A program made the translations under genes and the position numbers. Shown here piece after piece: positions 10,873-45,063 of a stretch of DNA of 64,000 nt (within the stretch, counting starts at the first letter, position 1; every line of letters starts with the position of its first letter). Source of the DNA: Microbacterium sp. A20 (GTDB lineage Bacteria; Actinomycetota; Actinomycetes; Actinomycetales; Microbacteriaceae). The notes under the pieces are model-generated. The model was not told where the DNA came from. It did not search any database and worked only from the letters and a program-made list of their open reading frames with translations. The DNA is taken from positions 1 to 64,000 of the forward strand of contig NZ_SSDF01000065.1 in NCBI RefSeq assembly GCF_004794515.1, in the 5' to 3' direction.

Positions 10873-11867
10873 GCCTCCCGGATGGTGGATCGAGGGTCGA
10901 GGAGGGCGAGGATCACGTCGATCACGAGGTTCACGACGAGGACGCCGACGCCGTAGACGAGCACGATCCCCTGGACCACGGAGTAGTCCTTCGTGAGGAT
11001 CGACTGCACGATCATGGTGCCCAGGCCCGGCCAGGCGAAGACGTTCTCGACCAGCACGGTCCCGGCGACCATGCCCGTCAGGAGCAGGCCGGTGAGCGTG
11101 AGGGTCGCCGTCATGGCGTTCGGCAGCGCGTGGCGCGAGTAGATGCGGTGCGGGGCGAGCCGCTTGGCGCGCGCGGTGCGGATGAAGTCCTGGCCGAGCA
11201 CCGAGAGCACCTCGACGCGGATGATGCGCGAGAAGACCGCGATGGGTCCGACCGCGAGCGCCACCACGGGGAGGACGAGTGCGAACGGCGCGGTGTTGCC
11301 GGCGACCGGGAACCAGCCGAGGGAGACCGCGAACACATAAACGAGTCCGACCGCGAGGAGGAACTCGGGAATCGCGGCCAGGATCACCGACCCGGTCGCG
11401 AACGCCAGCTCGAGGCCGCGCCGCCGCCCGCCTCGGGTGAGGACGGCCATCGTCACCCCGAGCGGGACCGAGACCAGCAGCACGAGGAGCACCGCGAGGA
11501 GGGCGAGCTGGAGGGTGGCCGGAAGTCGGGTGGCGATGATCTCCGACACCGGTTGGCTGGTGATCATCGATGTGCCCATGTCGCCGGTGAACAGACCGCC
11601 GATGTAGCGGAAGTACTGCACGATCAGCGGCTGGTCGAGCCCGAGCGCGGCGCGTCTGGCCTCGACCAGCTCGGTCGGGGCGTTCAGCCCGAGCGCGGCT
11701 CGCACCGGGTCGCCCGGCACGAGGTGGATCATGAGGAAGGCAGCCGTGACCAGCACCCACACCGAGAGCAGGAACTGCCCTCCGCGACGGACCAGGAAGG
11801 ACACCCAGGGGTTGTCCGACCGTGCGGATCTGATCAGTATCGCCTGCGTGGCGGTGGTGCTGGCCAT
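10869..11867 (-). CDS. Peptide ABC transporter permease (OppB/DppB type)
   Basis: 332-residue inner-membrane permease. First membrane segment near 32-50, the typical MIHLVPGDPVRAALG stretch following it, several further hydrophobic segments, and the coupling-loop-like sequence QDFIRTARAKRLAPHRIYSR. Ends NLVIDVILALLDPRSTIREA, a standard OppB C terminus. It would pair with the OppC half of the next protein to form the translocation pore. It follows the binding-protein gene after 21 nt and overlaps the next start. Confidence 0.9.
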   Translation of the reverse strand: MASTTATQAILIRSARSDNPWVSFLVRRGGQFLLSVWVLVTAAFLMIHLVPGDPVRAALGLNAPTELVEARRAALGLDQPLIVQYFRYIGGLFTGDMGTSMITSQPVSEIIATRLPATLQLALLAVLLVLLVSVPLGVTMAVLTRGGRRRGLELAFATGSVILAAIPEFLLAVGLVYVFAVSLGWFPVAGNTAPFALVLPVVALAVGPIAVFSRIIRVEVLSVLGQDFIRTARAKRLAPHRIYSRHALPNAMTATLTLTGLLLTGMVAGTVLVENVFAWPGLGTMIVQSILTKDYSVVQGIVLVYGVGVLVVNLVIDVILALLDPRSTIREA

Positions 11868-11888
11868 CGGCTGCCTCCGGTCCCAGAT

Positions 11889-13484
11889 CTACTCGTACAT
11901 GCGGATCGACGTGGGGTCGATGCCGTCGCCCTCGGTGAAGGTCGCCTTGGTCGCGAAGGTCGACCGCGTGATGTTCGCGTACGGCACGACGCTGGTCGTC
12001 TCGAACAGTGCCTCCTCCGCGGCGGCCCAGTCGTCGCAGCCCTCGTTCCCGGCTTCGGCGGATGCCGCGGTGACGGCGGCGGTGTAGTCGGGGTTGTCGA
12101 TCGAGGCGTAGTTGGTGCCGTTCGGGGGCGTCGGTCCGGAGTAGAACGGCACGAGCATGCTCGGCAGCGAGACCGTCAGCGGCGCCGCCGAGATGTCCCA
12201 GTCGCCGGTGGAGAACAGCACCTCGCTAAGGGTCGGCGAGTCGACGGCGGTCACGCTGATGTCGACGCCGAGGTCCTTCCAGGCCGCCTGTGCGAGTTCG
12301 GCGGCGGCGTTGCCGGCATCTCCGAGCTGCGAGGAGTAGATCATCCGCAGGGTGAGCGTCTCGCCGTCCTTGGCACGCACCCCGTCGGAGCCGGCTTCCC
12401 ACCCGGCGTCGTCGAGTGCCGCGGCGGCTGCCTTCACATCCAGCTCGGGGAGGTGCCCCGAGACGGTGTCCGCCCGGCACGGGTTCGGCGACACCGTGAC
12501 GAGTCCGGTCGGCACCGTCGCCTTGCCGCTGCCGATGACCTGGCGCATCTGCTCGAGGTCGACCGCCTGCATCAGCGCCTCGCGCACCGCCTGGTCGGCC
12601 GTGGGTCGCCCTTCCGCCTGGTTGAAGGTGAAGGACCCGCCGGGGGTCTCGATCGAGGTGTGGAAGAGTCCGGCGTCCTCCACTCGTGCGGTGTCCGGGC
12701 CGATCACCAGGGCCGCGTTGACCTCACCAGACAGCAGCAGGTTGGTCGCGGTGGTCTCGTTGGGCACGACGCGGAACACGACGGTGTCCGGCAGGCCCTT
12801 CTGCTCCGGGTCCCAGTCGCCAGGGCCCCAGGCGAAGTCGTCCCGGCGGGTGAGGGTGTACTGGCTGTTGGGTGCGATCTCGGTCATGGTGAACATCCCC
12901 GTCGAGCCCTCACCCTTCGCGAGCGCATCCGGGTCATCGATCACGGTGCCGCAGACGATCGAGATGCTGCCGATGTTCTCGATGAGGAACGAGTCGGGGC
13001 GTCCGCTGGTGACGGTGACAGTGCCGGCGTCGTCGTCGCCGACCGCGGCTGTTCCGGGCTGCACCTGCAGGCCCATGAGCGGCGAGCCGTTCGCGGGGTC
13101 CCCGATGTGGGTGATGTTCGCTGCGACGTCGGTCGCCGTCAGGGGCGTGCCGTCCTCGCACGAGAGGTCGTCTCGGAGCGTGAAGGTCGCGGTCGTCGTG
13201 TCCGCCTCCCACTTCTCGGCCAGGCCGGAGGCGATGCTGCCGTCTTCCGAGACCTCCACGAGGCGGGCGTAAAGGAAGCGGTCGATCGAGCGGGCGACGG
13301 ACATCACGGTCACGAACGGATCCAGGCTGCCCGGGTCGGTCGAGATCACCGAGGTGAAGGTCTTGCCGTCGGCGAGGACGCCCTCGGGAGCGTCTCCGCC
13401 GCCGGGGGAAGCGCCTGCGGCACAGGACGTCAGGGCGAGCGCCGCAGCGCCGAGCAGCGCGATCAGCGGGGTACGAGAACGCAT
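11889..13484 (-). CDS. Peptide-binding lipoprotein, extracellular solute-binding family 5
   Basis: 531-residue lipoprotein with a short signal ending at lipobox ALTSC (C21), followed by a Gly/Ser/Pro-rich linker. The mature protein resembles DppA/OppA-type binding proteins (family 5), with TSVISTDPGSLDPFVTVMS near the N terminus and a long two-lobed body. ATG at 13484 is chosen because GGAGG stands about 9 nt upstream and the signal peptide begins there; the longer reading frame upstream overlaps the preceding gene. It delivers peptides to the permease encoded immediately downstream. Ligand class (D-residue or wall peptides) is only inferred from neighbours. Confidence 0.9.
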   Translation of the reverse strand: MRSRTPLIALLGAAALALTSCAAGASPGGGDAPEGVLADGKTFTSVISTDPGSLDPFVTVMSVARSIDRFLYARLVEVSEDGSIASGLAEKWEADTTTATFTLRDDLSCEDGTPLTATDVAANITHIGDPANGSPLMGLQVQPGTAAVGDDDAGTVTVTSGRPDSFLIENIGSISIVCGTVIDDPDALAKGEGSTGMFTMTEIAPNSQYTLTRRDDFAWGPGDWDPEQKGLPDTVVFRVVPNETTATNLLLSGEVNAALVIGPDTARVEDAGLFHTSIETPGGSFTFNQAEGRPTADQAVREALMQAVDLEQMRQVIGSGKATVPTGLVTVSPNPCRADTVSGHLPELDVKAAAAALDDAGWEAGSDGVRAKDGETLTLRMIYSSQLGDAGNAAAELAQAAWKDLGVDISVTAVDSPTLSEVLFSTGDWDISAAPLTVSLPSMLVPFYSGPTPPNGTNYASIDNPDYTAAVTAASAEAGNEGCDDWAAAEEALFETTSVVPYANITRSTFATKATFTEGDGIDPTSIRMYE

Positions 13485-13548
13485 CAGAAGCCTCCAGCAG
13501 TGTTCGGGATGGTGCAGGTGGTGGTGCAGGGGGTGGGGCGGGTGCAGA

Positions 13549-14460
13549 TCAGAGTGCGCGCAGGTGCTCGACGGCGGAGAAGGCCGCGCGACCGATCGAG
13601 GCGTCCACGAGGGGCTGCCTGTCGGCGAGCGATGCAGCGCGGGTGAAGACGGCCACGGCGTACTGCCGGCCGTCGGGATAGGTGACGACACCGGCCTCGT
13701 TGCGCCAGGTGGGGAGGGTGCCGGTCTTCGCCGCGATGCGGACCCCGGGCGGGAAGCCGGAGGTCAGCCGGTGCGGCCAGACCTGCAGCGCCATGATCTC
13801 GCGCGCCTGGCGGCAGGCCTTGGCCGACGCCGCCGTGTCCGTCCACAGTGCGTTCAGTAGCGTGGTGACGTCACGCGGCGTGGAGTGCGAGGTCTTGACG
13901 GGATGCACCGCGTCGAGCGCGAGGATCTGCTCGGCCGTCGCGCCCTCGAAGAGCTCATCCAGATCGCTGTCGGCCGCACCGCCCAGATCGGCGATGACCG
14001 AGGCGAAGAGGTCTTCGCAGCATCCGATGAGTCGCGTCTGCCTGAGCCCCAGATCGCTGATCACCCGGTTCACGGCCTCCGTGCCGAGGCGGTGGTAGAG
14101 GACGTCGGTCGCGGCGTTGTCGCTCATCGTCATCATGTTCAGCGCGAGGTCGCGCCAGCTGGCCACGACGTCGTCCGCGAAGCCGGCCGTGCCCACGCCG
14201 CCGATGCGGTAGCGCGCCGTCACGGTGGTCCGCTCGGTCGGGTCGAGTTCACCGGCGGCGACCGCGCGGACGTAGGCGGTGAGGACGAGGATCTTGAACA
14301 CCGAGGCGAGCACCACGGGCTCGTCGGCGCCGACGCTCACCTCCGCGCCGCCCTCGACGCCGATCTCCCGTGCGTGCAGGAAACCGGTGGCGCCGGCATC
14401 CGTGAAGATCTCCTGGATGTCGGACGAGATCGCCGACTGCGGCGCCGTGACCGTGCTCAC
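13549..14460 (-). CDS. Class A beta-lactamase-fold serine hydrolase without signal peptide
   Basis: 303 residues with the penicillin-recognising triad: S53-VF-K56 (S-x-x-K), S113-D-N115 (SDN) and K245-T-G247 (KTG). I see no clear omega-loop ExxLN motif, which true class A beta-lactamases use for deacylation, and no export signal, so the enzyme should be cytosolic. That argues against simple penicillin resistance and for hydrolysis of an imported D-amino-acid-containing peptide or amide. Its ATG overlaps the stop of the preceding class C-like hydrolase by 4 nt, and the peptide transporter follows. A beta-lactamase that detoxifies internalised drug remains possible. Confidence 0.8.
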   Translation of the reverse strand: MSTVTAPQSAISSDIQEIFTDAGATGFLHAREIGVEGGAEVSVGADEPVVLASVFKILVLTAYVRAVAAGELDPTERTTVTARYRIGGVGTAGFADDVVASWRDLALNMMTMSDNAATDVLYHRLGTEAVNRVISDLGLRQTRLIGCCEDLFASVIADLGGAADSDLDELFEGATAEQILALDAVHPVKTSHSTPRDVTTLLNALWTDTAASAKACRQAREIMALQVWPHRLTSGFPPGVRIAAKTGTLPTWRNEAGVVTYPDGRQYAVAVFTRAASLADRQPLVDASIGRAAFSAVEHLRAL

Positions 14461-15845
14461 GCGTCGACCCGGCGGTCGGCGCGTCCCGTGTGCAGGTACA
14501 GGGCGCGTCCGGTGCCGTCGTCGCCGACGAAGGCGTGCGGCATGCGCATCCCGTGCTCCTGCTTGCGGGGGAGCAGCGTGTCCCTCGTCCAGCCGACCAG
14601 CTCGACCGGCTCCGGTGCCGGGCCGAGCTCGGCGAAGATCCCCTTCATGGTGCGCTCCAGCCAGATGCGGCCGTCGTCGTCGAGTCGCACCGTCGAGTCG
14701 GAGACCGACGACGAATACGTGCCGAGGATGCGGTCCACGTCGATCTCGACCGGCGTCTCGGGGATCGTGGGCAGGGCGGGCATCGTGACCCCGGCCAGCG
14801 CCTCGAGCACCCGGGAGGTGATGGCGTGGTAGGCGTCGACCGTCTGCCCGCCGTTGGTGAGGACCGCCACGGCGACCCCTGCGGAGGGGACCATCCGCAG
14901 GAACGCGTTCTGCCCGATCGTGCCGCCGTCGTGGCCGATCACCGGGCCGCCTTCCCAGTCGAAGATCTCCCAGCCCAGGCCCCAGGCGTCGCCCATCAGA
15001 CCGAGCTCGGGAAGGTCGACCTGCCGCTCCTGCATCGCCCGCACGCTCTGCTCCGAGAGCACGCGGGTCCCGTCAGAGGCGACGCCGCCGTCGAGGTGCA
15101 TCCGGGCATAGCTCACCAGGTCGTGCGCCGTCATGGCGAGCATCGATCCGGCCGGAGCGTTGGAGCGCACGAGGCTCCACACCGGAGCGGGCACCGGCTC
15201 GTCGCTGCCCTCTGCGGGGATGTGCCCGAGCGCGGCGCGGAACATGATCGCCTCGGACGCCGTGGTGGCCACGTGGGTCAACCCCAGCGGACCGGCGAGG
15301 TGGGTGCGGAGCGCCTGATCGTAGGACGTGCCGCGCAGCACCTCGACGATGCGGCCGAGCACCACGAACGCGGCGTTGTTGTACGAGAAGCGCTCGCCGG
15401 GGGCGAAGAGCTGCGGGGCATCGGCGATCGTGGCGAGGTACTTCTCCACGGCGTCGTCGCCCACTCCGGTGTCGTTGAACAGATCGCCCTCGAAACCGCT
15501 CACGTGGCTCAGCAGCTGCCGAGCGGTGATCGCGCTCGCCGCCGCGTCGTCGCCGATCGCGAACGCGGGCACGGTGTCGCGCACCGGGGCGTCGATGTCG
15601 AGCAGACCCTCGTCGACGAGCTGCATGATGAGCGTCGCCGTCCAGGTCTTCGTGATCGAGCCGATCTGGAAGACCGAGTCGACGTCGGCCTCGACACCGG
15701 TGTTGCGGTTCAGGATGCCGGCGGCGGTGGTGAAGATCTCGCCTCCGGACAGGATCGCGACGGATGCCGCGGGGATGTGCGCGTCGGCCAGCATCGTGGG
15801 AAGGTTCTCCCGCACCCAGCTGCCGATTTCGTTCAGGTCGGACAC
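14457..15845 (-). CDS. Class C beta-lactamase / D-aminopeptidase-like serine hydrolase
   Basis: 462-residue cytosolic hydrolase. S63-IT-K66 is the nucleophile motif, Y155-x-N157 the second motif and HDGGTIGQN carries the third. A smaller C-terminal domain (from about residue 350) resembles the accessory domains of D-aminopeptidases and EstB-type esterases. GTG at 15845 is preferred because GAGGAG lies just upstream; an ATG 33 nt earlier would add residues with no similarity. It is clearly related to the second half of the 1110-residue fusion encoded downstream. It begins after a 143-nt gap and is translationally coupled to the class A-like gene. Confidence 0.82.
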   Translation of the reverse strand: MSDLNEIGSWVRENLPTMLADAHIPAASVAILSGGEIFTTAAGILNRNTGVEADVDSVFQIGSITKTWTATLIMQLVDEGLLDIDAPVRDTVPAFAIGDDAAASAITARQLLSHVSGFEGDLFNDTGVGDDAVEKYLATIADAPQLFAPGERFSYNNAAFVVLGRIVEVLRGTSYDQALRTHLAGPLGLTHVATTASEAIMFRAALGHIPAEGSDEPVPAPVWSLVRSNAPAGSMLAMTAHDLVSYARMHLDGGVASDGTRVLSEQSVRAMQERQVDLPELGLMGDAWGLGWEIFDWEGGPVIGHDGGTIGQNAFLRMVPSAGVAVAVLTNGGQTVDAYHAITSRVLEALAGVTMPALPTIPETPVEIDVDRILGTYSSSVSDSTVRLDDDGRIWLERTMKGIFAELGPAPEPVELVGWTRDTLLPRKQEHGMRMPHAFVGDDGTGRALYLHTGRADRRVDA

Positions 15846-35992: not shown

Positions 35993-37423
35993 ATGACTGG
36001 GAACAATCTCGCCATCATCGTCCTCGCTGCAGGTCAGGGCACGCGCATGAAGTCGCGTCTGCCCAAGGTGCTGCACCCGATCGGCGGGCGTCCGCTGGTG
36101 GGGCATGTGCTCACCACGGCCGGGCGGCTGCAGGCCGCGCACATCGAGGTGGTCGTGCGGCACGAGCGCGACCAGGTGGTCGCCGCCCTCGCGAAGGACT
36201 ACCCCGACGCGGTGTTCATCGACCAAGATGACGTGCCGGGAACAGGACGGGCCGTTCAGGTGGCGGTCGACGCGCTCCCCGAGGACTTCGACGGCGACGT
36301 GCTCGTGCTCTCCGGCGACTGCCCGCTCGCCGACGCAGACACCCTCTCCGCGTTCGTGGCGGAGCACCGCGCGTCGGGCGCTCCGGCGACGCTGATGACG
36401 GCACTGCTCGACGACCCGACGGGATACGGCCGCGTCGTCCGTGACGCCGACGGAGGTGTCGACCGCATCGTCGAGCAGAAGGACGCGAGTGCAGAAGAGG
36501 CCGCCGTCCGCGAGATCAACGCCGGGATGTACGTGTTCCGCGCCGAGACCCTGCGCACGTACCTGCCGCGGGTCGGCGTCGACAACGCGCAGGGCGAGAT
36601 GTACCTGACCGACGTCCCCGGGCTGCTCCGTCGCGACGGCGACCGGGTGGCGGCATCCGTGGTCTCCGACATCGCGGTGACGTTCGGGGTGAACGACCGC
36701 GCGCAGCTGGCCGAGGTCGGTCGCCTGCTCAACCAGCGCATCGTGCGCCGCTGGCAGCTCGAGGGCGTCACCGTCATCGACCCGACCACCACCTGGATCG
36801 ACGACGACGCGCAGCTCTCGCCCGACGTCACCCTCCTCCCGAACACGCACATCCTCGGTGCCACGGTCATCGCGTCCGGGGCCGTGATCGGACCCGACAC
36901 GACCCTCGTCGACTGCGAGGTCGGCGAAGACGCGACCGTCCGTCGTACGGATGCCACCCTCGCCGTGATCGGGGCGGAGGCCACGGTCGGCCCGTTCTCG
37001 TTCCTCCGCGCGGGTACGGTCCTCGGCGCCAAGGGCAAGATCGGCGCCTACGTCGAGACGAAGAACGCCGAGATCGGCGAGGGCAGCAAGGTCCCGCACC
37101 TGTCCTACGTGGGTGACGCCACGATCGGCCGCGGTGTCAACCTCGGCGCGAGCACCATCACGGCGAACTACGACGACGTGAACAAGCACCGCACCGAGAT
37201 CGGCGACGAGGTTCACACCGGCTCGCACACGGTGCTCGTCGCGCCCGTTAGGCTGGGAGCTGGCGCGAAGACCGGCGCCGGCGCGGTCGTCCGCAAGGAT
37301 GTCCCGGCCGGCGCACTGGCCATGACCGTCGCACCCCAGCGCAACATCGAAGGCTGGGTCGCGAAGAACAGAGCAGGCACGGGCGCGGCGGATGCTGCGT
37401 CCCGCGAGAATTCGGCGGAATAG
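35993..37423 (+). CDS. glmU: Bifunctional UDP-GlcNAc pyrophosphorylase / glucosamine-1-phosphate acetyltransferase GlmU
   Basis: 476-residue cytosolic enzyme making UDP-N-acetylglucosamine for peptidoglycan. The N-terminal uridylyltransferase domain has LAAGQGTRMKSRLPKVLHPI and later GDCPL. The C-terminal left-handed beta-helix (from about residue 255) has hexapeptide repeats and the acetyltransferase region PFSFLRAGTVLGAKGKIGAY, ending NLGASTITANYDDVNKHRTE. The ATG is 2 nt after the tRNA-Gln gene, leaving no room for a leader if the tRNA is cut out, so translation may be leaderless or rely on the unprocessed transcript. Followed 7 nt later by prs. Confidence 0.96.
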   Translation: MTGNNLAIIVLAAGQGTRMKSRLPKVLHPIGGRPLVGHVLTTAGRLQAAHIEVVVRHERDQVVAALAKDYPDAVFIDQDDVPGTGRAVQVAVDALPEDFDGDVLVLSGDCPLADADTLSAFVAEHRASGAPATLMTALLDDPTGYGRVVRDADGGVDRIVEQKDASAEEAAVREINAGMYVFRAETLRTYLPRVGVDNAQGEMYLTDVPGLLRRDGDRVAASVVSDIAVTFGVNDRAQLAEVGRLLNQRIVRRWQLEGVTVIDPTTTWIDDDAQLSPDVTLLPNTHILGATVIASGAVIGPDTTLVDCEVGEDATVRRTDATLAVIGAEATVGPFSFLRAGTVLGAKGKIGAYVETKNAEIGEGSKVPHLSYVGDATIGRGVNLGASTITANYDDVNKHRTEIGDEVHTGSHTVLVAPVRLGAGAKTGAGAVVRKDVPAGALAMTVAPQRNIEGWVAKNRAGTGAADAASRENSAE

Positions 37424-37430
37424 GCGGAGC

Positions 37431-38465
37431 ATGGCGCGCAAGAAGAAGACGGTCGATCTGGATCGCGACAACGGCGTGGCTCCCGGCATCATCGCCAAGA
37501 CGAAGAAGCGACTCGTCGTCGCCGGCGGGCGTTCGCACCCGGCACTCACGGCAGCGGTCGCCGAAGCGCTCGGCACGGAGATCGCCCCGGTCGAGCACCG
37601 CACGTTCGCGTCCGGTGAGATCTACGCCCGCTTCGAGGTTTCGATCCGCGGCGTCGATCTCTTCCTGATCCAGACGTTCGGCGAGCCGGTCAACGAGTGG
37701 CTCATGGAGACGCTCATCATGATCGATGCCGCCAAGCGCGCATCCGCCAAGCGCATCACCGTCGTCGCGCCGTACTATCCGTATTCGCGTCAGGACAAGA
37801 AGGGTCGCGGTCGCGAGCCGATCAGCGCCCGTCTCGTCGCCGACCTGCTGAAGACCGCCGGCGCCGACCGCGTCATGAGCGTCGACCTGCACGCCGCGCA
37901 GATCCAGGGCTTCTTCGACGGACCCGTCGATCACCTCTTCGCCAAGCCCGTGCTGCTGGACTACTTCGAGCGCACGCTCTCGCCGGCCGACCGCGAGATC
38001 CTCACCGTCGTCTCGCCTGACATGGGGCGTGTCCGCGTCGCAGACACCTGGTCCGACAGCCTCGGTGCTCCGCTCGCGATCATCCACAAGCGCCGTGACC
38101 CGAAGGTGGCCAACCAAGTCTCGGTGCACGAGATCGTCGGAACCGTCGAGGGGCGCACCTGCCTCCTCGTCGACGACATGATCGACACCGGTGGCACGAT
38201 CGTCAAGGCCGCCCAGGCTCTCAAGGCGGCCGGAGCGCACCGTGTGATCGTCGCGGCGACCCACGCGATCTTCAGCGACCCGGCATCCGATCGCCTGCAG
38301 GACTCGTCGATCGACGAGGTCGTCATCACCGACACGATCCCGCTCACGGAGTCGCGTCGGTGGGACAGCCTCACGATCCTCCCGATCGCGCCGCTGCTCG
38401 CCCGTGCCATCCACGAGGTCTTCGAAGACGGCTCCGTGACGAGCATGTTCGGCGGCGACGCGTAA
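37431..38465 (+). CDS. prs: Ribose-phosphate pyrophosphokinase (PRPP synthetase)
   Basis: 344 residues, slightly longer than the usual ~315 because of a basic N-terminal extension (MARKKKTVDLDRDNGVAP). It makes PRPP for nucleotide, histidine and tryptophan synthesis. Visible motifs are PYYPYSRQDKKGRGREPISA (ATP/flexible region), SVDLHAAQIQGFF (metal/ATP) and the PRPP loop CLLVDDMIDTGGT. ATG at 37431 has GGCGGAG just upstream. Part of the common tRNA-Gln/glmU/prs arrangement. Confidence 0.95.
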   Translation: MARKKKTVDLDRDNGVAPGIIAKTKKRLVVAGGRSHPALTAAVAEALGTEIAPVEHRTFASGEIYARFEVSIRGVDLFLIQTFGEPVNEWLMETLIMIDAAKRASAKRITVVAPYYPYSRQDKKGRGREPISARLVADLLKTAGADRVMSVDLHAAQIQGFFDGPVDHLFAKPVLLDYFERTLSPADREILTVVSPDMGRVRVADTWSDSLGAPLAIIHKRRDPKVANQVSVHEIVGTVEGRTCLLVDDMIDTGGTIVKAAQALKAAGAHRVIVAATHAIFSDPASDRLQDSSIDEVVITDTIPLTESRRWDSLTILPIAPLLARAIHEVFEDGSVTSMFGGDA

Positions 38466-38515
38466 CGCATCGTCACGGCACAGCCCGCGCATAGACACGG
38501 TGCTTACGGTCGAAA

Positions 38516-38535
38516 GGTCGACGATCCCGTCGACC
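38516..38535. promoter_or_regulatory. 8-bp-arm palindrome in the leader of the flavin module
   Basis: GGTCGACG, loop ATCC, CGTCGACC: a perfect inverted repeat 24 nt before the FMN-binding lipoprotein ATG and 50 nt after the prs stop. It could be an operator or a hairpin in the leader. Confidence 0.4.
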
Positions 38536-38558
38536 GACACCGCGCCGGGAGGACCAGC

Positions 38559-39032
38559 ATGATCCGCACGACCGTACCGACCTCTGTCCGCAAGGGATCC
38601 GCCATCCTCGGGATCGCGGGCCTGTTCGTCCTCGCCGGGTGCTCCGGCGCCACCGACGCGGATGATTCATCGAACGACGCCGGCAGCACGCCGGATGCCG
38701 GTTCGTCGGAGTCGTCGGGTGGCGACTCCACCGCCACCTACGAAGACGGCACCTACACGGCCGACGGCTCGTACCAGACCCCCGAGACGGTCGAGCAGAT
38801 CTCCGTCACGCTGACCCTCGCCGACGGCGTGGTGACCGATGTCGAGGTCACGGGCGACCCGCAGGCACCCGAGACCGAGCAGTACCAGGGCCAGTTCATC
38901 GACGGCATCGCCGACGAGGTCGAGGGCAAGTCGATCGACGAGCTGAACGTCAGCCGGGTCGCCGGCTCGTCGCTCACCAGCGGCGGGTTCAACGACGCCG
39001 TCGAGTCGATCAAGGAGCAGGCCGCCGCCTAG
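38559..39032 (+). CDS. FMN-binding-domain lipoprotein
   Basis: 157-residue small lipoprotein. Signal with lipobox LAGC (C28), a Ser/Asp/Gly-rich linker to about residue 58, then an FMN_bind domain (residues 60-157). The covalent FMN site is probably T140 in RVAGSSLTSGGFNDAV, the position where ApbE-type transferases attach FMN by phosphoester in RnfG/NqrC-like domains. Located outside the membrane as an electron carrier. The gene for the likely transferase (ApbE) follows after 14 nt and a membrane flavin reductase after that. GGGAGG precedes the ATG. Confidence 0.85.
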   Translation: MIRTTVPTSVRKGSAILGIAGLFVLAGCSGATDADDSSNDAGSTPDAGSSESSGGDSTATYEDGTYTADGSYQTPETVEQISVTLTLADGVVTDVEVTGDPQAPETEQYQGQFIDGIADEVEGKSIDELNVSRVAGSSLTSGGFNDAVESIKEQAAA

Positions 39033-39046
39033 GCGCCTGAGGCCGC

Positions 39047-39928
39047 ATGGCGAGCTGGCGCTTCGAGGCGATCGGAACGCACTGGGAGATCGAGACGACC
39101 GATCCGCTCGCGGACTCCGTGCGTGCGGCGGTCGACGCCGAGATCGAGCGCTTCGACCGGGAGTGGTCCCGGTTCCGCGGCGACTCCGCGGTGACGCGGC
39201 TCGGACGCGAGGGCGGCTCCTTCGCATCACCGGACGCCGCTCCGATGCTCGACGCGTACCGCGAGCTCTCGGCGGCGACGGGCGGCGCCGTGAACCCGCT
39301 CGTCGCGGTCAGTCTCGAAGCCCTCGGGTACGACGCGGGCTATTCGCTCGTCGGCGGTGATCCGGTGCGCGCTCCGGACGCCTGGCAGGAGCAGGTGTCG
39401 TGGACGACCGCCGAGGTCACGGCATCCGTCCCGGCGCTCCTCGACGTCGGCGCGCTCGGCAAGGGGCGACTCGTCGATCTCGTGATGAGAGCGCTCGCGG
39501 ACGTGCCGGGCGATGTGGTGGTCGATGCGGGCGGCGACATCCGGGTGCGTGGTGCGGCCGTGCGCATCGGGCTCGAGCATCCGTACGACGCCACGAAGGC
39601 GATCGGGGTCGTCGAGGTGCGCGACCAGGCACTGTGTGCCTCCGCCGTGAACCGGCGGGCGTGGGGGAACGGACTGCACCACGTACTCGACGCCCGCACG
39701 GGGCTTCCGGTGCGCGCGTGGGCGGCGACGTGGGCGCTCGCCCCCGACGCGATGACGGCGGATGCCGTCTCGACCGCGCTATTCTTCGACGGCGGACCGG
39801 AGCTCGCCGACGCCTGGGGCGTGGAATGGGTGCGGATGAGCACCGACGGCCGGGTGCAGCACTCGCCGGGATGCCCTGCGGAACTGTTCCTCACGGAGAC
39901 GAAGACGCGCCCCACAGCAACGAATTAG
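39047..39928 (+). CDS. apbE: FAD:protein FMN transferase (ApbE family)
   Basis: 293 residues. It transfers FMN from FAD to Thr/Ser of target domains. The typical beginning (FEAIGTHWEIETTD; W-SRF-G-S in EWSRFRGDSAVTRLG), Mg/FAD region VDVGALGKGRLVDLVMRAL as LLDVGALGKGRLVDLV, GDVVVDAGGDIRV and HHVLDARTGLPV, and AMTADAVSTALFF are all present. It has no visible signal peptide, although its presumed lipoprotein target is exported, which is odd. It lies between the target and the membrane flavin reductase in one operon. Confidence 0.9.
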   Translation: MASWRFEAIGTHWEIETTDPLADSVRAAVDAEIERFDREWSRFRGDSAVTRLGREGGSFASPDAAPMLDAYRELSAATGGAVNPLVAVSLEALGYDAGYSLVGGDPVRAPDAWQEQVSWTTAEVTASVPALLDVGALGKGRLVDLVMRALADVPGDVVVDAGGDIRVRGAAVRIGLEHPYDATKAIGVVEVRDQALCASAVNRRAWGNGLHHVLDARTGLPVRAWAATWALAPDAMTADAVSTALFFDGGPELADAWGVEWVRMSTDGRVQHSPGCPAELFLTETKTRPTATN

Positions 39929-39934
39929 GGAAGA

Positions 39935-41518
39935 GTGGAGAACGTGATCACCTCATTCGCCGCCGCACGTCAGCGGGTCCTCGCGGTTCTGGGCTCGCTC
40001 TCGATGTATCGCCTCGTGCTGTTCGCGCTGATCGCCCTCGCCGTCATCGCGTTCGTGCTCTCGCTGTTCGGCGTGATCGTCTCGCCCACGCCGCTCGAGA
40101 TGGTGGCGTCGTTCCTGGTGCTCGCGATCGTGATCTCGCTCGTCGACGCCGCAGCCCAGCGCATCCTGCGGCTGCCGTGGCGCATCGAATCCTCCCTCGT
40201 CACGGCGCTGATCCTGCTGTTCGTGCTCCGCCCCGGTCTCGAGCTCGGCGCGCTCCTCGGACTCGCCCTCGCCGGAGCCGTGGCGAGCGTGTCGAAGTAC
40301 CTCATCGCGTGGCGCGGTCGACACATCTTCAACCCGGCGGCGTTCGGTGCGGCGGTCGTCTCGATCCTCGGCGCATTCGGAGCGTTCGAGTGGCTGGGCA
40401 CGTCGTCGTCCTGGTGGGTCGGGACGCCCGTCCTGACGATCCCCGTGCTCGTCCTCGGTCTCGCCGTGCTGTGGCGCACCGAGAAGGTGCGGGTGGTGCT
40501 GATCTTCGTGCTCGTCGCCGTCGTCACCGCGGTCGTGCGCCAGGGCGTGCAGGCCGCGCAGTTCGACATCGACTTCGATGTGCTCACCGCGCTGCAGTTC
40601 GCGGTGCTGCAGTCGCCGTTCCTGTTCCTCGGGGCGTTCATGCTCTCCGAGCCGCTCACGCTTCCGCCGCGTCGCCGCCAGCAGTTCGCGGTGGCCGTCG
40701 TGGTGGGTCTCCTCGCCGGGTGGCCGATCTCGGTCGCCGGCCTGTTCACGCTCGGCCAGGAGCGGGCTCTCCTCATCGGGAACCTGGTGGCCTTCGCGTT
40801 CGCACTGCGGGGGTCGGTGCGACTCGTGCTCGAGCGGCGGGACTTCATCACCCCGACCGCGCAGGAGCTGACCTTCCGGGCCAAGGGCCGGGTCCGATTC
40901 CTCCCGGGGCAGTACCTCGAGCTCGACGTCCCGCATCACCGCCCCGACGCGCGCGGCACCCGGCGGGAGTTCAGCATCGTGTCGGCGCCGGCCGACCTGC
41001 CGACGCTGCGGATCGCGTACAAGAACGGCGACCAGAAGCATCCGTCGAGCTACAAGCGGGCCCTGGCCGCCGCCGAGCCCGGCGCGACGTTCGCGGTCAC
41101 GGGAACCTGGGGCGATTTCATCCTGCCGCGCGGCGACCATCCGGTGCTGATGGTCGCCGCCGGGATCGGCGTCACGCCGTTCGTCTCCCAGTTGCGTCAG
41201 CTTCAAGCGGCGGGGCAGCAGCGTGACGTGGTGCTCGTGTACGTGGCATCAGAGGCGTCCGAGCTCGCCTTCCGCGATGAGCTCGCCGCGACGGGCGTGC
41301 GCACGGTCGTGTTCACCCGCGACGAGCCGCTCGACCTGCCCGCGCACTGGTCCTGGGCGCGGGGCGCACGACTGGATGCCGAGACCCTCGAGCGCACGGT
41401 GCCCGATCTCGCCGCCCGCCATGCGTTCATCTCCGGGCCGCCGCGCCTGATCGCCGACCTCGCCCCCGCGCTGCAGAAGGCCCGCGCCCTCACGACCGAC
41501 GCCTTCGCCGGCTACTGA
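39935..41518 (+). CDS. Fusion of RnfD/NqrB-like membrane domain and ferredoxin-reductase-like FAD/NAD(P) domain
   Basis: 527 residues. Residues 20-295 contain about nine hydrophobic segments resembling RnfD/NqrB, including SKYLIAWRGRHIFNPAAFGA, the flavin-attachment neighbourhood in that family. Residues ~300-527 form an FNR-like module with FLPGQYLELDVPHHRPD, the FAD motif RREFSIVSAP (R-x-x-S), the NAD(P) glycine loop VAAGIGVTPFVSQLRQL and a C-terminal FISGPPRLI. It should move electrons from NAD(P)H across or into the membrane to the FMN lipoprotein. Start is GTG at 39935; GTG at 39944 is an alternative. Last gene of the operon. Confidence 0.86.
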   Translation: MENVITSFAAARQRVLAVLGSLSMYRLVLFALIALAVIAFVLSLFGVIVSPTPLEMVASFLVLAIVISLVDAAAQRILRLPWRIESSLVTALILLFVLRPGLELGALLGLALAGAVASVSKYLIAWRGRHIFNPAAFGAAVVSILGAFGAFEWLGTSSSWWVGTPVLTIPVLVLGLAVLWRTEKVRVVLIFVLVAVVTAVVRQGVQAAQFDIDFDVLTALQFAVLQSPFLFLGAFMLSEPLTLPPRRRQQFAVAVVVGLLAGWPISVAGLFTLGQERALLIGNLVAFAFALRGSVRLVLERRDFITPTAQELTFRAKGRVRFLPGQYLELDVPHHRPDARGTRREFSIVSAPADLPTLRIAYKNGDQKHPSSYKRALAAAEPGATFAVTGTWGDFILPRGDHPVLMVAAGIGVTPFVSQLRQLQAAGQQRDVVLVYVASEASELAFRDELAATGVRTVVFTRDEPLDLPAHWSWARGARLDAETLERTVPDLAARHAFISGPPRLIADLAPALQKARALTTDAFAGY

Positions 41519-41520
41519 TC

Positions 41521-41625
41521 CATCCCGTCCCACCCCATCCGTCCCACCCCACCCGTACCTCCCGTCCGTCCCGCCCGTCCCGTCCCGTCCGTCCCGTCCC
41601 GTCCCGTCCGTCCGTCCCCGCCCGT
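41521..41625. repeat. Low-complexity CCGTC/CCCGT polypyrimidine tract
   Basis: About 105 nt right after the oxidoreductase stop made of irregular CCCGTC, CCGTC and CCCAC units with almost no A. In the transcript it is C-rich and G-poor with little structure, the composition favoured by Rho at rut sites. It could also be plain slippage-generated microsatellite. Confidence 0.75.
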
Positions 41626-41630
41626 AGGTA

Positions 41631-41712
41631 CACCTGTCGGGAGTACGCACGGATGTCGGACGAATCGCCGCGAGATGCCCCGACATCTGTGCATCCTCCC
41701 GACGAGTGTGCG
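41631..41712. repeat. 82-bp flanking repeat, left copy, with nested dyad symmetry
   Basis: Gapless counterpart of 42667-42748 (64 of 82 bases identical by my count). Outer arms GTCGGGAG / CTCCCGAC and inner arms CGGATGTCGG / CCGACATCTG can form a nested hairpin. Ends about 97 nt before the start of the nuclease gene. Confidence 0.8.
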
Positions 41713-41808
41713 GCGCATCCCCTTCTGCACATCCCGGATTCGCCTCGGATCGCCCCACAACGGCGGCATCCAGCTCGCTCAGTCCGTTGGGAGCATCAGG
41801 ATCGGTGG

Positions 41809-42642
41809 ATGCTCAGCGCTCAATCCGCGACCGACCGGCACGGCGGTGTCGTGCGGGGAACCCTGCTCGAGAAGTACGGAATCACTCGTCGGATGCGGGC
41901 GGATGCTGTTCGCGCCGACACCTTGATCCGCGTGAGAGCGGGCGTGTTCGCCGACCCGAATGCGGATACGAGCCTCGTGGAGGCAGCGGCGCACGGCGGG
42001 GCCCTCACCTGCGCCCACGCGTTGCGCCTGCACGGCGTCTGGGTGCTCAACCCCGGCGGCCCCGTTCACGTCTGGCTCGGCGCGAAGGGCCGCGTTCATC
42101 ACGAGAAGTGTGAGTGCGTCGCGCACTATGACGCGGGTCACGCCGGTGTCGGACTCGCCCCGTTGGAGGAGGTGCTGATCCACGTCTACCGCTGTGCCGG
42201 AGACGAGGCGTTCTTCGCCGCTCTGGAGTCCGCACTGGTGCAGCAGAAGATCAGCGGTGCGGCACTGCGCCGGATTCGCCGTCGACTACCGGCCCGCGCG
42301 CACTGGCTCGTGGACCTCGCGCGATCGGATGCCGACAGCGGTCTCGAATCGCTCCTGCGGTTGCGTCTGCACCTGCACGGCATCAGCTTGGACTGCCAGG
42401 TGACCATCCCGACCGTCGGGCGAGTGGATTTCGTGCTCGATGGGCGCCTGATCCTCGAGGCCGACGGGAAAGGCAACCATGATGTCCCCGCGCATCGCCA
42501 CCGTGATCTCGTGAGGGATGCCGCGGCGTCGGCTCTCGGCTACGAGACGCTGAGGTTCGACTACGCGCAGATCGTCCACGCCTGGCCTACGGTCGAGGCC
42601 GCCGTGCTCGCCGCCATCACCCGCCTGCGTGCGCGCAGCTGA
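41809..42642 (+). CDS. DUF559-type (Vsr-like) nuclease-domain protein with AbiEi-like N terminus
   Basis: 277 residues from ATG at 41809, with AGGA about 9 nt upstream; the frame is open further upstream but runs through the left repeat. The N-terminal ~60 residues (GGVVRGTLLEKYGITRRMRA) look like the winged-helix start of AbiEi-type proteins. The C-terminal ~90 residues resemble DUF559, a PD-(D/E)xK/Vsr-like nuclease: E180, D207 in VGRVDFVLDG, and E217-x-D219-x-K221 in LILEADGKG. It lies alone between two convergent genes and is bracketed by 82-bp direct repeats. Function (defence, repair, mobility) is unknown; no partner toxin is adjacent. Confidence 0.75.
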   Translation: MLSAQSATDRHGGVVRGTLLEKYGITRRMRADAVRADTLIRVRAGVFADPNADTSLVEAAAHGGALTCAHALRLHGVWVLNPGGPVHVWLGAKGRVHHEKCECVAHYDAGHAGVGLAPLEEVLIHVYRCAGDEAFFAALESALVQQKISGAALRRIRRRLPARAHWLVDLARSDADSGLESLLRLRLHLHGISLDCQVTIPTVGRVDFVLDGRLILEADGKGNHDVPAHRHRDLVRDAAASALGYETLRFDYAQIVHAWPTVEAAVLAAITRLRARS

Positions 42643-42805: not shown

Positions 42806-44338
42806 TCACGCCTCGGGCGCGACATCTCCGGCGGCCGCGGGGGTGACCGGGATGCGTACCGTGAAGGTGGTGTCGCCGGGCTCGCTGGCCACCGAGATGA
42901 CGCCGTGGTGGCCCTCGACGATGGCCTTGACGATCGCGAGGCCCAGTCCGGTTCCCCCGGTCTGACGGGCCCGGGAGCTGTCGCCGCGGGCGAAGCGTGC
43001 GAAGAGCTCGTCTCGGATGGCGGGGTCGATGCCGGGGCCGTCGTCGTGTACGCGCAGCACGGCATCGTCGCCCTCCCTCGCGACGCTCAGCGTGATCGTG
43101 GTGCCGGCCGGCGTGTGCGTGCGGGCGTTCGCGAGGAGGTTCGCGACGACCTGGTGCATCCGCCCGGCATCGCCGACGACCGTCACCGGCTCGTCTGGCA
43201 CCTCGATGCTCCAGTGGTGGTCGGCCGCCGTCGGGCGGGCATCCGAGAGACCTTCCAGCGCGAGCTGGGCGAGGTCCACCGTGCCGTAGACCAGCTCCTG
43301 ACCCTCGTCGAGCCGCGCGAGCAGCAGCAGGTCCTCGACGAGGCGGGTCATCCGCAGGGACTGCGCCTGGATGCGCTCGAGCGACGAGGTCGTGCTCTCG
43401 ATGACCTCGGGGCCCTGCTCCGCGGCCGGATGCCGATGCAGTGCGCGCAGCGACAGCTCCGAGTAGCCGCGGATGGAGGCGAGCGGCGTGCGCAGTTCAT
43501 GACTGGCGTCGGCGACGAACCGTCGCATCCGCTCCTCGTTCTTCTGCCGCGAGGCGAGCGACGTGTTCACGTGATCGAGCAGCTTGTTCAGCGACGCACC
43601 GACGAGACCGGTCTCGGTGCGCGGATCGGCTTCGGATGCCGGCACGCGCTCGGTGATGGTCACCTCGCCCCGATCCAGCTGCTGGTTCGCGACCCTGGTC
43701 GCCGTGAGCGCGACGGCCCGCAGCGGGCGCAGGCTCACCCGGATGGTGATCGCGGTGGTCAGCGCCAACAGGATCAGACCGCCGATGGTGGCGAGGGCGA
43801 TCACGGTGAGCAGCTGCGTGAGCTGGCTCTGGATCTCGTCGCGGGGGAGCCCGGTGATCACGACGACGCCGTTGGTCGCGGGCAGGGCCATGATCCGGTA
43901 GGAGCCGAGGTCGGTGAGGGACACGGTGGCGACCGACGTGCCCTTCAGGGACAGTGCGATCTCCGCCAGCTGCGTGCTGCTGAGTGGCTCCAGGGATCCG
44001 GTGAGTTCCTCTCCCGACGAGTTCTTCGCGACCACCCCGCTGAAGCCGGTGACAGGGCTCGAGACCACGAACACGAGTCCGGCCGGCGGTGACGCCGTGG
44101 GGCCGGAGAGGACGTTCTGCGCCGTGGCAGAAGATGGTGCGAAGGCTCCGGTCCGATCCGCCAACTGGTGCGCGTAGGTGCTCAGCTTCTGGTCGAGCTG
44201 GTCCTCCATGGTCTTGCCCAGCGTGGCGCTGGTGATGACGGCGACGATGATGAGGATCAGCGACACGAACCCGATCACGGCGGTCATCAGCCGTGTCTGC
44301 AGGCTCATCGGCCGCCTCATCATCGTCGCTGAGCTCAC
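42806..44338 (-). CDS. Membrane sensor histidine kinase
   Basis: 510 residues from GTG at 44338. Membrane segments at ~19-40 and ~175-198 enclose an extracytoplasmic sensor of about 130 residues. HAMP follows (RPLRAVALTATRVANQQL), then HisKA with phospho-acceptor H280 in FVADASHELRTPLASIRGYS, and a HATPase with N box VANLLANARTHTPAGTT and G boxes DDGPGID and GGTGLGLAIVKAIV. The start overlaps the response-regulator stop (GTGA). Signal unknown. Confidence 0.92.
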   Translation of the reverse strand: MSSATMMRRPMSLQTRLMTAVIGFVSLILIIVAVITSATLGKTMEDQLDQKLSTYAHQLADRTGAFAPSSATAQNVLSGPTASPPAGLVFVVSSPVTGFSGVVAKNSSGEELTGSLEPLSSTQLAEIALSLKGTSVATVSLTDLGSYRIMALPATNGVVVITGLPRDEIQSQLTQLLTVIALATIGGLILLALTTAITIRVSLRPLRAVALTATRVANQQLDRGEVTITERVPASEADPRTETGLVGASLNKLLDHVNTSLASRQKNEERMRRFVADASHELRTPLASIRGYSELSLRALHRHPAAEQGPEVIESTTSSLERIQAQSLRMTRLVEDLLLLARLDEGQELVYGTVDLAQLALEGLSDARPTAADHHWSIEVPDEPVTVVGDAGRMHQVVANLLANARTHTPAGTTITLSVAREGDDAVLRVHDDGPGIDPAIRDELFARFARGDSSRARQTGGTGLGLAIVKAIVEGHHGVISVASEPGDTTFTVRIPVTPAAAGDVAPEA

Positions 44339-45063
44339 TGCGGAGCCTTGATCATGTAGCCGACGCCGCGGACGGTGTGCAGCAGCGGCGTGCGGCCGGC
44401 GTCGATCTTCTTGCGCAGGTACGAGATGTACAGCTCGACCACCGACGACTTGCCGCCGAAGTCGTAGCTCCAGACCCGGTCGAGGATCTGCGCCTTCGAC
44501 AGCACGCGCCGTTCGTTGCGCATGAGGTAGCGGAGCAACTCGAACTCGGTCGCGGTGAGCTCGATCTCGGTGCCGTCGCGCACGACCTCGTGGCTGTCCT
44601 CGTTGAGCGTGAGGTCCGCGACACGCAGGATCGACTGTCCGTCGTCGGTGGTCGCGTGGCCGGTGCGGCGGATGATCGCGCGCAGCCGTGCGATGACCTC
44701 CTCCAGGCTGAACGGCTTGGTGACGTAGTCGTCGCCGCCCGCGGTGAGGCCGGCCACGCGGTCGCCCACGGCATCCTTGGCGGTCAGGAACAGCACCGGA
44801 ACGAGGTTCCCCGACTCGCGCAGCCGCTTCAACACGGACATGCCGTCCAGGTCGGGCATCATGATGTCGAGCACGAGCGCGTCGGGTTCGAAATCGCGCG
44901 CGACCTGGAGCGCTTCCAGACCGGAGGATGCCGTGCGCACCTCCCAGCCCTCCATGCGCAGGGCCATCGCGAGCAGGTCGGTCAGCATCTGCTCGTCGTC
45001 GACGGCGAGGATGCGCAGGGGGGTGCCGTCGGGGCGGCGCAGTTCGGGCAGGTCGCTGGTCAT
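44335..45063 (-). CDS. OmpR-family response regulator
   Basis: 242 residues. Receiver with acidic pair D22-D23 (AVDDEQ), phospho-acceptor D66 (LVLDIMMPDLDG), switch Thr and K in FLTAKDAVGD and VTKPFSLEEV. A C-terminal winged helix with ELTATEFELLRYLMRNERRV and the recognition region ending VVELYISYLRKKIDAGRTPL. Upstream of the gene three phased CTATG(T/G) repeats suggest autoregulation. Co-transcribed with the kinase gene. Confidence 0.93.
   Translation of the reverse strand: MTSDLPELRRPDGTPLRILAVDDEQMLTDLLAMALRMEGWEVRTASSGLEALQVARDFEPDALVLDIMMPDLDGMSVLKRLRESGNLVPVLFLTAKDAVGDRVAGLTAGGDDYVTKPFSLEEVIARLRAIIRRTGHATTDDGQSILRVADLTLNEDSHEVVRDGTEIELTATEFELLRYLMRNERRVLSKAQILDRVWSYDFGGKSSVVELYISYLRKKIDAGRTPLLHTVRGVGYMIKAPQ

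What the first reader, a model, noticed from the sequence alone, without database searches (positions are those of the whole stretch)
38559..41518. Three-gene extracytoplasmic flavin electron-transfer module
FMN-binding lipoprotein, ApbE and an RnfD/NqrB-like domain fused to a ferredoxin-reductase module form a minimal path from NAD(P)H through the membrane to a surface flavin. Unlike Rnf or Nqr complexes, only one membrane protein is present. Terminal acceptor is unknown (metal, quinone, methionine sulfoxide or other).
Basis: partly seen in the sequence, partly recalled or inferred. Interest (0 to 1): 0.65.

Follow-up and report, generated by a model that had tools for sequence, protein, structure and literature searches.

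The report
Known-type surface flavin electron exporter
Three adjacent genes encode a small machine that probably passes electrons from NADH or NADPH inside the cell, through one membrane protein, to a flavin-carrying protein on the cell surface; the type was described in 2021, and this copy adds detail on which residues may hold the flavins and on a likely link to metal uptake.

Summary
An FMN_bind lipoprotein, ApbE and a one-chain RnfD/NqrB-like membrane domain fused to an FAD/NAD(P) reductase lie in tandem at 38559-41518. This is the published 'NQR/RNF-like' flavinylation system (Meheust 2021; Huang 2024), so the kind is not new.

Corrections and additions:
- The flavinylated residue is by alignment S138 (AGS-S-LTS), not T140.
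- The membrane half has the NqrB/RnfD fold but lacks the loop with their covalent-FMN threonine.
- The riboflavin site of Vibrio NqrB is largely kept: T90 and N133 retained, N200 now His130, D346 now Glu239, nearly invariant in 56 homologues.
- The trio is a unit, present in 85 of 89 same-genus genomes. Three near-complete genomes without it keep the flanking two-component pair, so that pair is a bystander.
- No fourth gene is general. In 8 of 80 relatives a divalent-metal importer (NRAMP, VIT1 or ZnuABC-type) lies beside the trio, in 6 directly downstream on its strand.
- Pfam's NQR2_RnfD model misses this protein.

Likely route: NAD(P)H, FAD, bound flavin in the membrane, lipoprotein FMN, outside acceptor. 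The acceptor is unproven; ferric iron is the leading guess.

The parts
38559..39032 (+). FMN_bind lipoprotein (157 aa); lipobox LAGC with Cys28; predicted flavinylated Ser138 at 38970-38972
   Evidence: PF04205 over cut-off; position 138 is S in 33 and T in 3 of 36 aligned members; model residues 62-155 match SaFMN3 domain 2, Z 11.3, rmsd 2.1 A, 87 residues
39047..39928 (+). ApbE FAD:protein FMN transferase (293 aa)
   Evidence: PF02424, 130.9 bits
39935..41518 (+). RnfD/NqrB-like membrane domain fused to FAD/NAD(P)H reductase (527 aa, GTG start)
   Evidence: PF00175; hhalign to RsxD; AlphaFold model pLDDT 93.9 matching NqrB, RnfD and NqrF
39992..40804 (+). membrane part, residues 20-290; putative bound-flavin site T90, H130, N133, E239
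   Evidence: aligned to NqrB T162, N200, N203, D346 through E. coli RsxD; T 53, H 55, N 56 and E 56 of 56 members
40814..41515 (+). cytosolic FAD/NAD(P)H reductase part, residues 294-527 (RRx[FL][ST], GIGxTP, C-terminal FxG[YF])
   Evidence: fold match to 4eh1_A (FAD/NAD domain of Vibrio nitric oxide dioxygenase) Z 25.9 and to NqrF FAD domains Z about 24; motif counts
37392..38465 (+). upstream neighbour: prs ORF (ribose-phosphate pyrophosphokinase), preceded by glmU; housekeeping, not part of the system
   Evidence: Pribosyltran_N etc.; same order in 15 of 15 same-genus 20-kb stretches
42806..45063 (-). convergent histidine kinase and response regulator; neighbour by synteny only
   Evidence: kept beside glmU-prs in the 3 near-complete genomes that lack the trio

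Best explanation
The trio is a self-contained NQR/RNF-like flavin electron exporter. NAD(P)H reduces the FAD of the cytosolic domain (inferred from fold and motifs). Electrons then enter a non-covalently held flavin inside the membrane domain, at the place of the NqrB riboflavin (inferred from residue conservation). They pass to the FMN that ApbE has attached to Ser138 of the lipoprotein, which docks on the outer face where NqrB would carry its own covalent FMN (inferred; docking was modelled in print for a homologue, not here). The charged lipoprotein then gives electrons to an acceptor outside. No dedicated acceptor protein is encoded beside it, so a small or low-specificity oxidant is more likely than one partner enzyme; ferric iron is favoured because metal importers recur beside relatives. 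Shown here: gene content, homology, fold predictions, residue conservation, unit inheritance, neighbours. Not shown: flavinylation, cofactors, direction of flow, acceptor.
For: Domains and compact operon. The same genes occur together across phyla: an FMN_bind gene in 73 of 80 fetched loci (up to 5 kb flanks) from Actinomycetota, candidate-phyla MAGs, Chloroflexota and Mesorhizobium. Three of the 7 misses (L121, L122, L133) start at or near a contig end. An ApbE gene was seen in 42 of 80 by one-sequence search and 64 of 80 by clustering. Co-absence: G043 and G057 lack all three genes; G004 lacks two and has only a distant ApbE elsewhere (31.5% identity). Retained flavin-site residues with the covalent Thr loop deleted. 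Only one conserved His in the membrane part. Predicted folds of both halves and of the FMN domain. The published model of the same kind agrees.
Against: No biochemical data for this clade. The riboflavin-site mapping is transitive (window to RsxD to NqrB) and two of its four residues are changed (N to H, D to E). The model has no cofactors and no complex could be modelled here. Four of 80 loci (L118, L123, L130, L134) lack a recognised FMN_bind neighbour for no reason I found. The window's own neighbours give no hint of an acceptor.
Confidence: 0.72

Rival explanations
1. Purpose: metal (iron) assimilation. The surface FMN reduces ferric iron, or another oxidised metal, for uptake. This fills in the acceptor of the best explanation rather than replacing its route.
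For: Beside the trio in 8 of 80 loci lies a divalent-metal importer. Directly downstream on the same strand: NRAMP in L095, L127, L128; VIT1 in L092; a ZnuA-type binding protein, ABC ATPase and ABC-3 permease in L108 and L113, with a FUR regulator gene too in L108. Divergent upstream: ABC-3 in L111, VIT1 in L115. In the 47 of these 80 genomes that I searched, 55 NRAMP matches would put about 0.5 within reach by chance, against 3 seen; each of the three is its genome's only NRAMP match. Metal-type P-ATPase genes lie in 6 of 80 loci by search. Meheust report VIT1 in 6 of 127 clusters. This genome's second flavin system lies beside a VIT1 gene.
Against: 72 of 80 loci show no such importer by these searches within the fetched flanks, and none lies next to the window's trio. 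L127 and L128 are both Uhrbacteria, so 3 NRAMP cases are perhaps 2 events. The families carry Mn or Zn as well as Fe (recalled), so the metal is not fixed.
Confidence: 0.5
2. It feeds a specific extracytoplasmic reductase encoded elsewhere (for example for methionine sulfoxide or a respiratory substrate).
For: FMN_bind modules serve respiratory and other oxidoreductases in other systems (PMC8238504, abstract and passages).
Against: No shared partner enzyme among the larger neighbour clusters of 80 loci; only two FMN_bind genes were found in the genome, neither with a fused reductase in the Pfam scans.
Confidence: 0.2
3. NADPH-oxidase-like enzyme: electrons cross the membrane to reduce oxygen outside.
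For: The membrane-plus-reductase layout resembles SpNOX, the top Foldseek row (8qt6, E 2e-13).
Against: That match is poor as a whole (TM 0.37, rmsd 14.4 A over 526 columns). No paired conserved histidines. The membrane half fits NqrB/RnfD. ApbE and an FMN protein travel with it.
Confidence: 0.05
4. The convergent two-component pair is part of the system and controls it.
For: Adjacent in 15 of 15 same-genus stretches; response regulators lie in 14 and kinases in 13 of 80 loci of the wider set by clustering.
Against: The pair stays beside glmU-prs in 3 of 3 near-complete genomes without the trio and has no hit over 40 residues in 4 of 4 stretches of other families that hold the trio.
Confidence: 0.1

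Closest known systems
NQR/RNF-like flavinylation system (Meheust et al. 2021, PMC8238504; Huang et al. 2024, PMC10979944)
   Same: FMN_bind subunit plus an NqrB/RnfD-like membrane domain fused to a PF00175 NAD-binding domain, with ApbE; covalent Thr of NqrB/RnfD lost; reported mainly from Actinobacteria and the candidate phyla radiation
   Different: This copy falls below detection by PF03116, which the first survey used; its FMN acceptor by alignment is Ser; it sits at a fixed glmU-prs site in the same-genus stretches examined
Na+-NQR and Rnf complexes
   Same: NqrB/RnfD fold, NqrC/RnfG-like FMN protein, NqrF-like FAD domain
   Different: No PF02508 subunits found in the genome, no covalent FMN loop in the membrane domain, no 2Fe-2S domain in the Pfam scan, one fused polypeptide
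MsrQ-like flavinylation system (second system of this genome, contig C82)
   Same: FMN_bind plus ApbE plus one membrane carrier
   Different: Carrier has a ferric-reductase-type membrane domain, PF01794, and the FMN motif is SGAT

Membership tests
[quoted passage not shown]
   hhalign E 2.9e-6 to RsxD; predicted fold matches NqrB and RnfD; PF03116 in 37 of 56 members. Against: PF03116, the survey's own screen, misses this protein itself and hits only 7 of 14 members of actinobacterial set A1
NQR/RNF-like flavinylation system | C-terminal NAD-binding domain PF00175 | tested here: met
   33 bits, cut-off 22
NQR/RNF-like flavinylation system | FMN_bind (and ApbE) encoded in the same cluster | tested here: met
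NQR/RNF-like flavinylation system | covalent-FMN Thr of NqrB/RnfD not conserved in the membrane subunit | tested here: met
   RsxD segment holding T187 (its flavinylation is recalled) aligns to a gap
NQR/RNF-like flavinylation system | one-way electron flow from NAD(P)H to the outside | not testable with these tools
   needs biochemistry
Rnf or Na+-NQR complex | RnfA/RnfE or NqrD/NqrE subunits (PF02508) | tested here: not met
   no match in the genome at E 0.001; 4 of 14 control genomes rang
MsrQ-like or PepSY-like heme carrier | paired conserved heme-binding histidines in the membrane part | tested here: not met
   H130 is the only His conserved in at least half of 56 members within residues 1-299
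FMN_bind (PF04205) | family score and [S/T]GA[S/T]-like motif | tested here: met
   24.2 bits, cut-off 22; S or T at position 138 in 36 of 36; the first and third motif residues are A and S in this protein (AGSS)

The most novel reading that the evidence does not exclude
The membrane domain is half of an NqrB run backwards. It keeps the inner (riboflavin-type) flavin site with a family-specific His in place of Asn200, has given up its own outer covalent FMN, and uses the Ser-linked FMN of the lipoprotein as a detachable replacement that docks, is charged and swings away to reduce metal for uptake. This would be a metal-free, flavin-only transmembrane wire and a test case for how NqrB-type flavins set electron direction.
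Probability: 0.4. Interest if true: 0.5.

Novelty: new member of a known kind. Interest (0 to 1): 0.35.

Why it matters
A published but little-studied electron exporter is nearly universal in one genus (85 of 89 genomes), most likely Microbacterium, and Pfam-based counts can miss such copies. Its probable flavin sites can be named residue by residue (S138; T90, H130, N133, E239), and neighbours in other phyla suggest what it is for, so both the flavin route and the metal idea become directly testable in a two-protein system instead of a six-subunit pump.

Tried and rejected
Two-component pair as dedicated regulator: rejected, because it is kept in 3 of 3 near-complete genomes without the trio. 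Heme carrier: rejected, because there is only one conserved His. One general fourth partner gene: not found; besides the trio the widest neighbour clusters were an ABC-transporter ATPase in 17 of 80 loci, response regulators in 14, kinases in 13 and housekeeping genes in 11; a MacB-type export permease lies in 5 and a HlyD-type fusion protein in 5, not followed up. A MOSC-domain gene lies next to the membrane gene in 5 same-genus genomes; as I recall MOSC proteins are cytosolic, and I did not build on it. PF04205 as a test of absence: insensitive (no match in G021 and G013, which have the gene), so I repeated with profile A5. Foldseek with the lipoprotein model gave nothing at E 0.001 or better; the second look gave SaFMN3 first, but unrelated IscU-type rows score as high as NqrC and RnfG there. 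hhalign of the lipoprotein family to RsxG was not significant (E 0.38). Promoter/terminator scan: 0 and 1 sites, about as in shuffles. An inverted repeat just upstream of the trio looked like an operator but is kept in 3 of 24 upstream regions. Plasmid search: no match. Papers: Meheust 2021 seen as abstract, section 13 and passages; Huang 2024 preprint as abstract, section 8 and passages, journal version not opened; Kishikawa 2022 as passages; all other papers only in search listings. Those listings show no paper that by title or opening abstract tests this system in Microbacterium; I opened only the three named.

Full report
What is there. The window lies in a 3.94 Mb genome of 91 contigs. 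The three genes sit at 38559-39032, 39047-39928 and 39935-41518, all on the + strand. Pfam gives FMN_bind, ApbE and NAD_binding_1, each above its cut-off. The first gene has a lipobox (LAGC, Cys28) read directly from sequence.

The flavin-carrying residue. Across 36 aligned members position 136 is always G, position 138 is S (33) or T (3), and position 140 is T (35) or S (1). The second FMN_bind protein of this genome has SGATYTS, whose T lines up with S138. An hhalign comparison with E. coli RsxG puts its motif Thr on S138, though that comparison as a whole is not significant (E 0.38). Huang 2024 gives the motif as [S/T]GA[S/T]-like (passage); that its last residue takes the FMN is recalled, as the passage's bold type is not shown. 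So S138 is the likely ApbE target. The modelled domain (residues 62-155) matches SaFMN3 domain 2 (Z 11.3, rmsd 2.1 A, 87 residues), CbFMN4 domain 1 (Z 9.1, 2.4 A, 82) and, no better than IscU-type rows, NqrC (4xhf_C, Z 8.7, 2.3 A, 88) and RnfG (7zc6_G, Z 8.3, 2.4 A, 88).

The membrane protein. A 56-member alignment gave a confident model (pLDDT 93.9, pTM 0.91). The membrane half matches Vibrio NqrB (8evu_B, Z 22.5, rmsd 3.4 A, 251 residues, model 20-294) and A. woodii RnfD (9eri_D, Z 22.9, rmsd 4.3 A, 255 residues); the other half matches FAD/NAD domains, among them NqrF (Z about 24). Profile comparison to E. coli RsxD gives E 2.9e-6, 26% identity over 230 columns, and the RsxD stretch with T187 falls in a gap. 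So the covalent-FMN loop is gone, as Huang 2024 reported for the kind.

A retained flavin site. Kishikawa 2022 places riboflavin in NqrB against Thr162, Asn203, Asn200 and Asp346 (passages). Numbering was checked on the printed alignment. Through RsxD T81, N122, N119 and D289 these fall on T90, N133, H130 and E239 of the window protein. In 56 members these are T 53/S 3, N 56, H 55/Q 1 and E 56. The two ring-contact residues are kept and the two ribityl-contact residues are replaced family-wide. In the text of the Huang preprint 'riboflavin' occurs once, in the introduction, so this mapping appears not to be in that text; I did not see its figures or supplement. The mapping is transitive and no cofactor was modelled.

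One unit. In 15 of 15 same-genus 20-kb stretches (of the 20 stretches fetched; the others are 4 from other families and the second flavin locus) the order is glmU, prs, trio, then the convergent kinase-regulator pair. In the 4 stretches from other families the trio is together without those neighbours. Of 89 same-genus genomes 85 have the membrane-reductase protein (84 over nearly its full length, G055 in part). The four without are G004, G043, G057 and the 44%-complete G039. In the three near-complete ones profile A5 finds no FMN_bind gene (controls G000, G021 and G013 rang), and ApbE is absent in two and present only as a distant one elsewhere in G004. There the kinase-regulator pair still sits by glmU-prs. 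The trio is therefore gained or lost as a unit and the pair is a neighbour.

Spread. With profile A1, 35 of 297 genomes of the order and 8 of 396 of the phylum match at E 1e-40 or better, own genome included. FMN_bind lies within the fetched flanks (up to 5 kb) in 73 of 80, ApbE in 42 by one-sequence search and 64 by clustering. A tree of 56 members splits them into a mostly actinobacterial half and a half of candidate phyla in which Chloroflexota, Mesorhizobium and one Actinomycetota group are nested; several inner forks lack support. This suggests transfer between phyla but was not tested.

Metal neighbours. Checking the neighbour clusters again, I found divalent-metal importers beside the trio in 8 of 80 loci: NRAMP in L095, L127, L128 and VIT1 in L092, directly downstream on the same strand; ZnuA-type binding protein, ABC ATPase and ABC-3 permease downstream in L108 and L113, with a FUR-family gene in L108; ABC-3 (L111) and VIT1 (L115) upstream on the other strand. 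Of the 80 genomes I searched 47 for NRAMP (mostly non-actinobacterial; 33 left out): 36 have it, 55 matches, about 0.5 expected by chance near the trio and about 0.003 directly downstream on the same strand, against 3. Two of the three are Uhrbacteria. P-type ATPases lie in 6 loci. None of these neighbours lies by the window's trio, so this is evidence about the family, not about this copy.

What it is. The published description of NQR/RNF-like systems fits in each feature that could be tested. The one mismatch is technical: PF03116, the published screen, does not find this protein and finds 7 of 14 members of set A1. I file it as a new member of that known kind.

How it probably works. NAD(P)H gives electrons to FAD in the cytosolic domain; they move to a bound flavin in the membrane half and on to the FMN on S138 of the docked lipoprotein; the lipoprotein hands them to something outside, most likely an oxidised metal. 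Each step after gene content and homology is inference.

Interest. The residue-level site, the clean unit loss and the metal-importer neighbours are modest additions. Score 0.35.

Noticed in passing
L050 (G000:C82), 9929-15466: Second flavin system in the same genome: ferric-reductase-type carrier (PF01794), FMN_bind with SGATYTS, ApbE, a convergent regulator-kinase pair, and a VIT1 gene just upstream on the same strand; an MsrQ-like layout, possibly for iron.
   Followed up: partly
window 41519-41625: About 100 bases of C/T-rich tandem repeat (units near TCCCG and TCCCGTCCCGCCCG) directly after the stop of the membrane gene.
   Followed up: no
L030 3042-3587 and L031, L032, L056, L060: A MOSC-domain gene lies beside the membrane gene in 5 same-genus genomes; in L030-L032 it lies between apbE and that gene.
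   Followed up: partly
window 41653-42642: DUF559-family protein (PF04480) in the gap between the trio and the kinase gene; present in some but not all relatives.
   Followed up: no
window 38465-38558: The 93-base gap before the trio holds a stretch (near ACAGCCCGCGCATAG, then TACGGTCGA) that recurs in many close relatives; it may be the trio's own promoter.
   Followed up: no
L088, L094, L101, L131 (and L093 in part): MacB-type permease with a HlyD-type fusion protein and ABC ATPase within 5 kb of the trio in several candidate-phyla MAGs.
   Followed up: no
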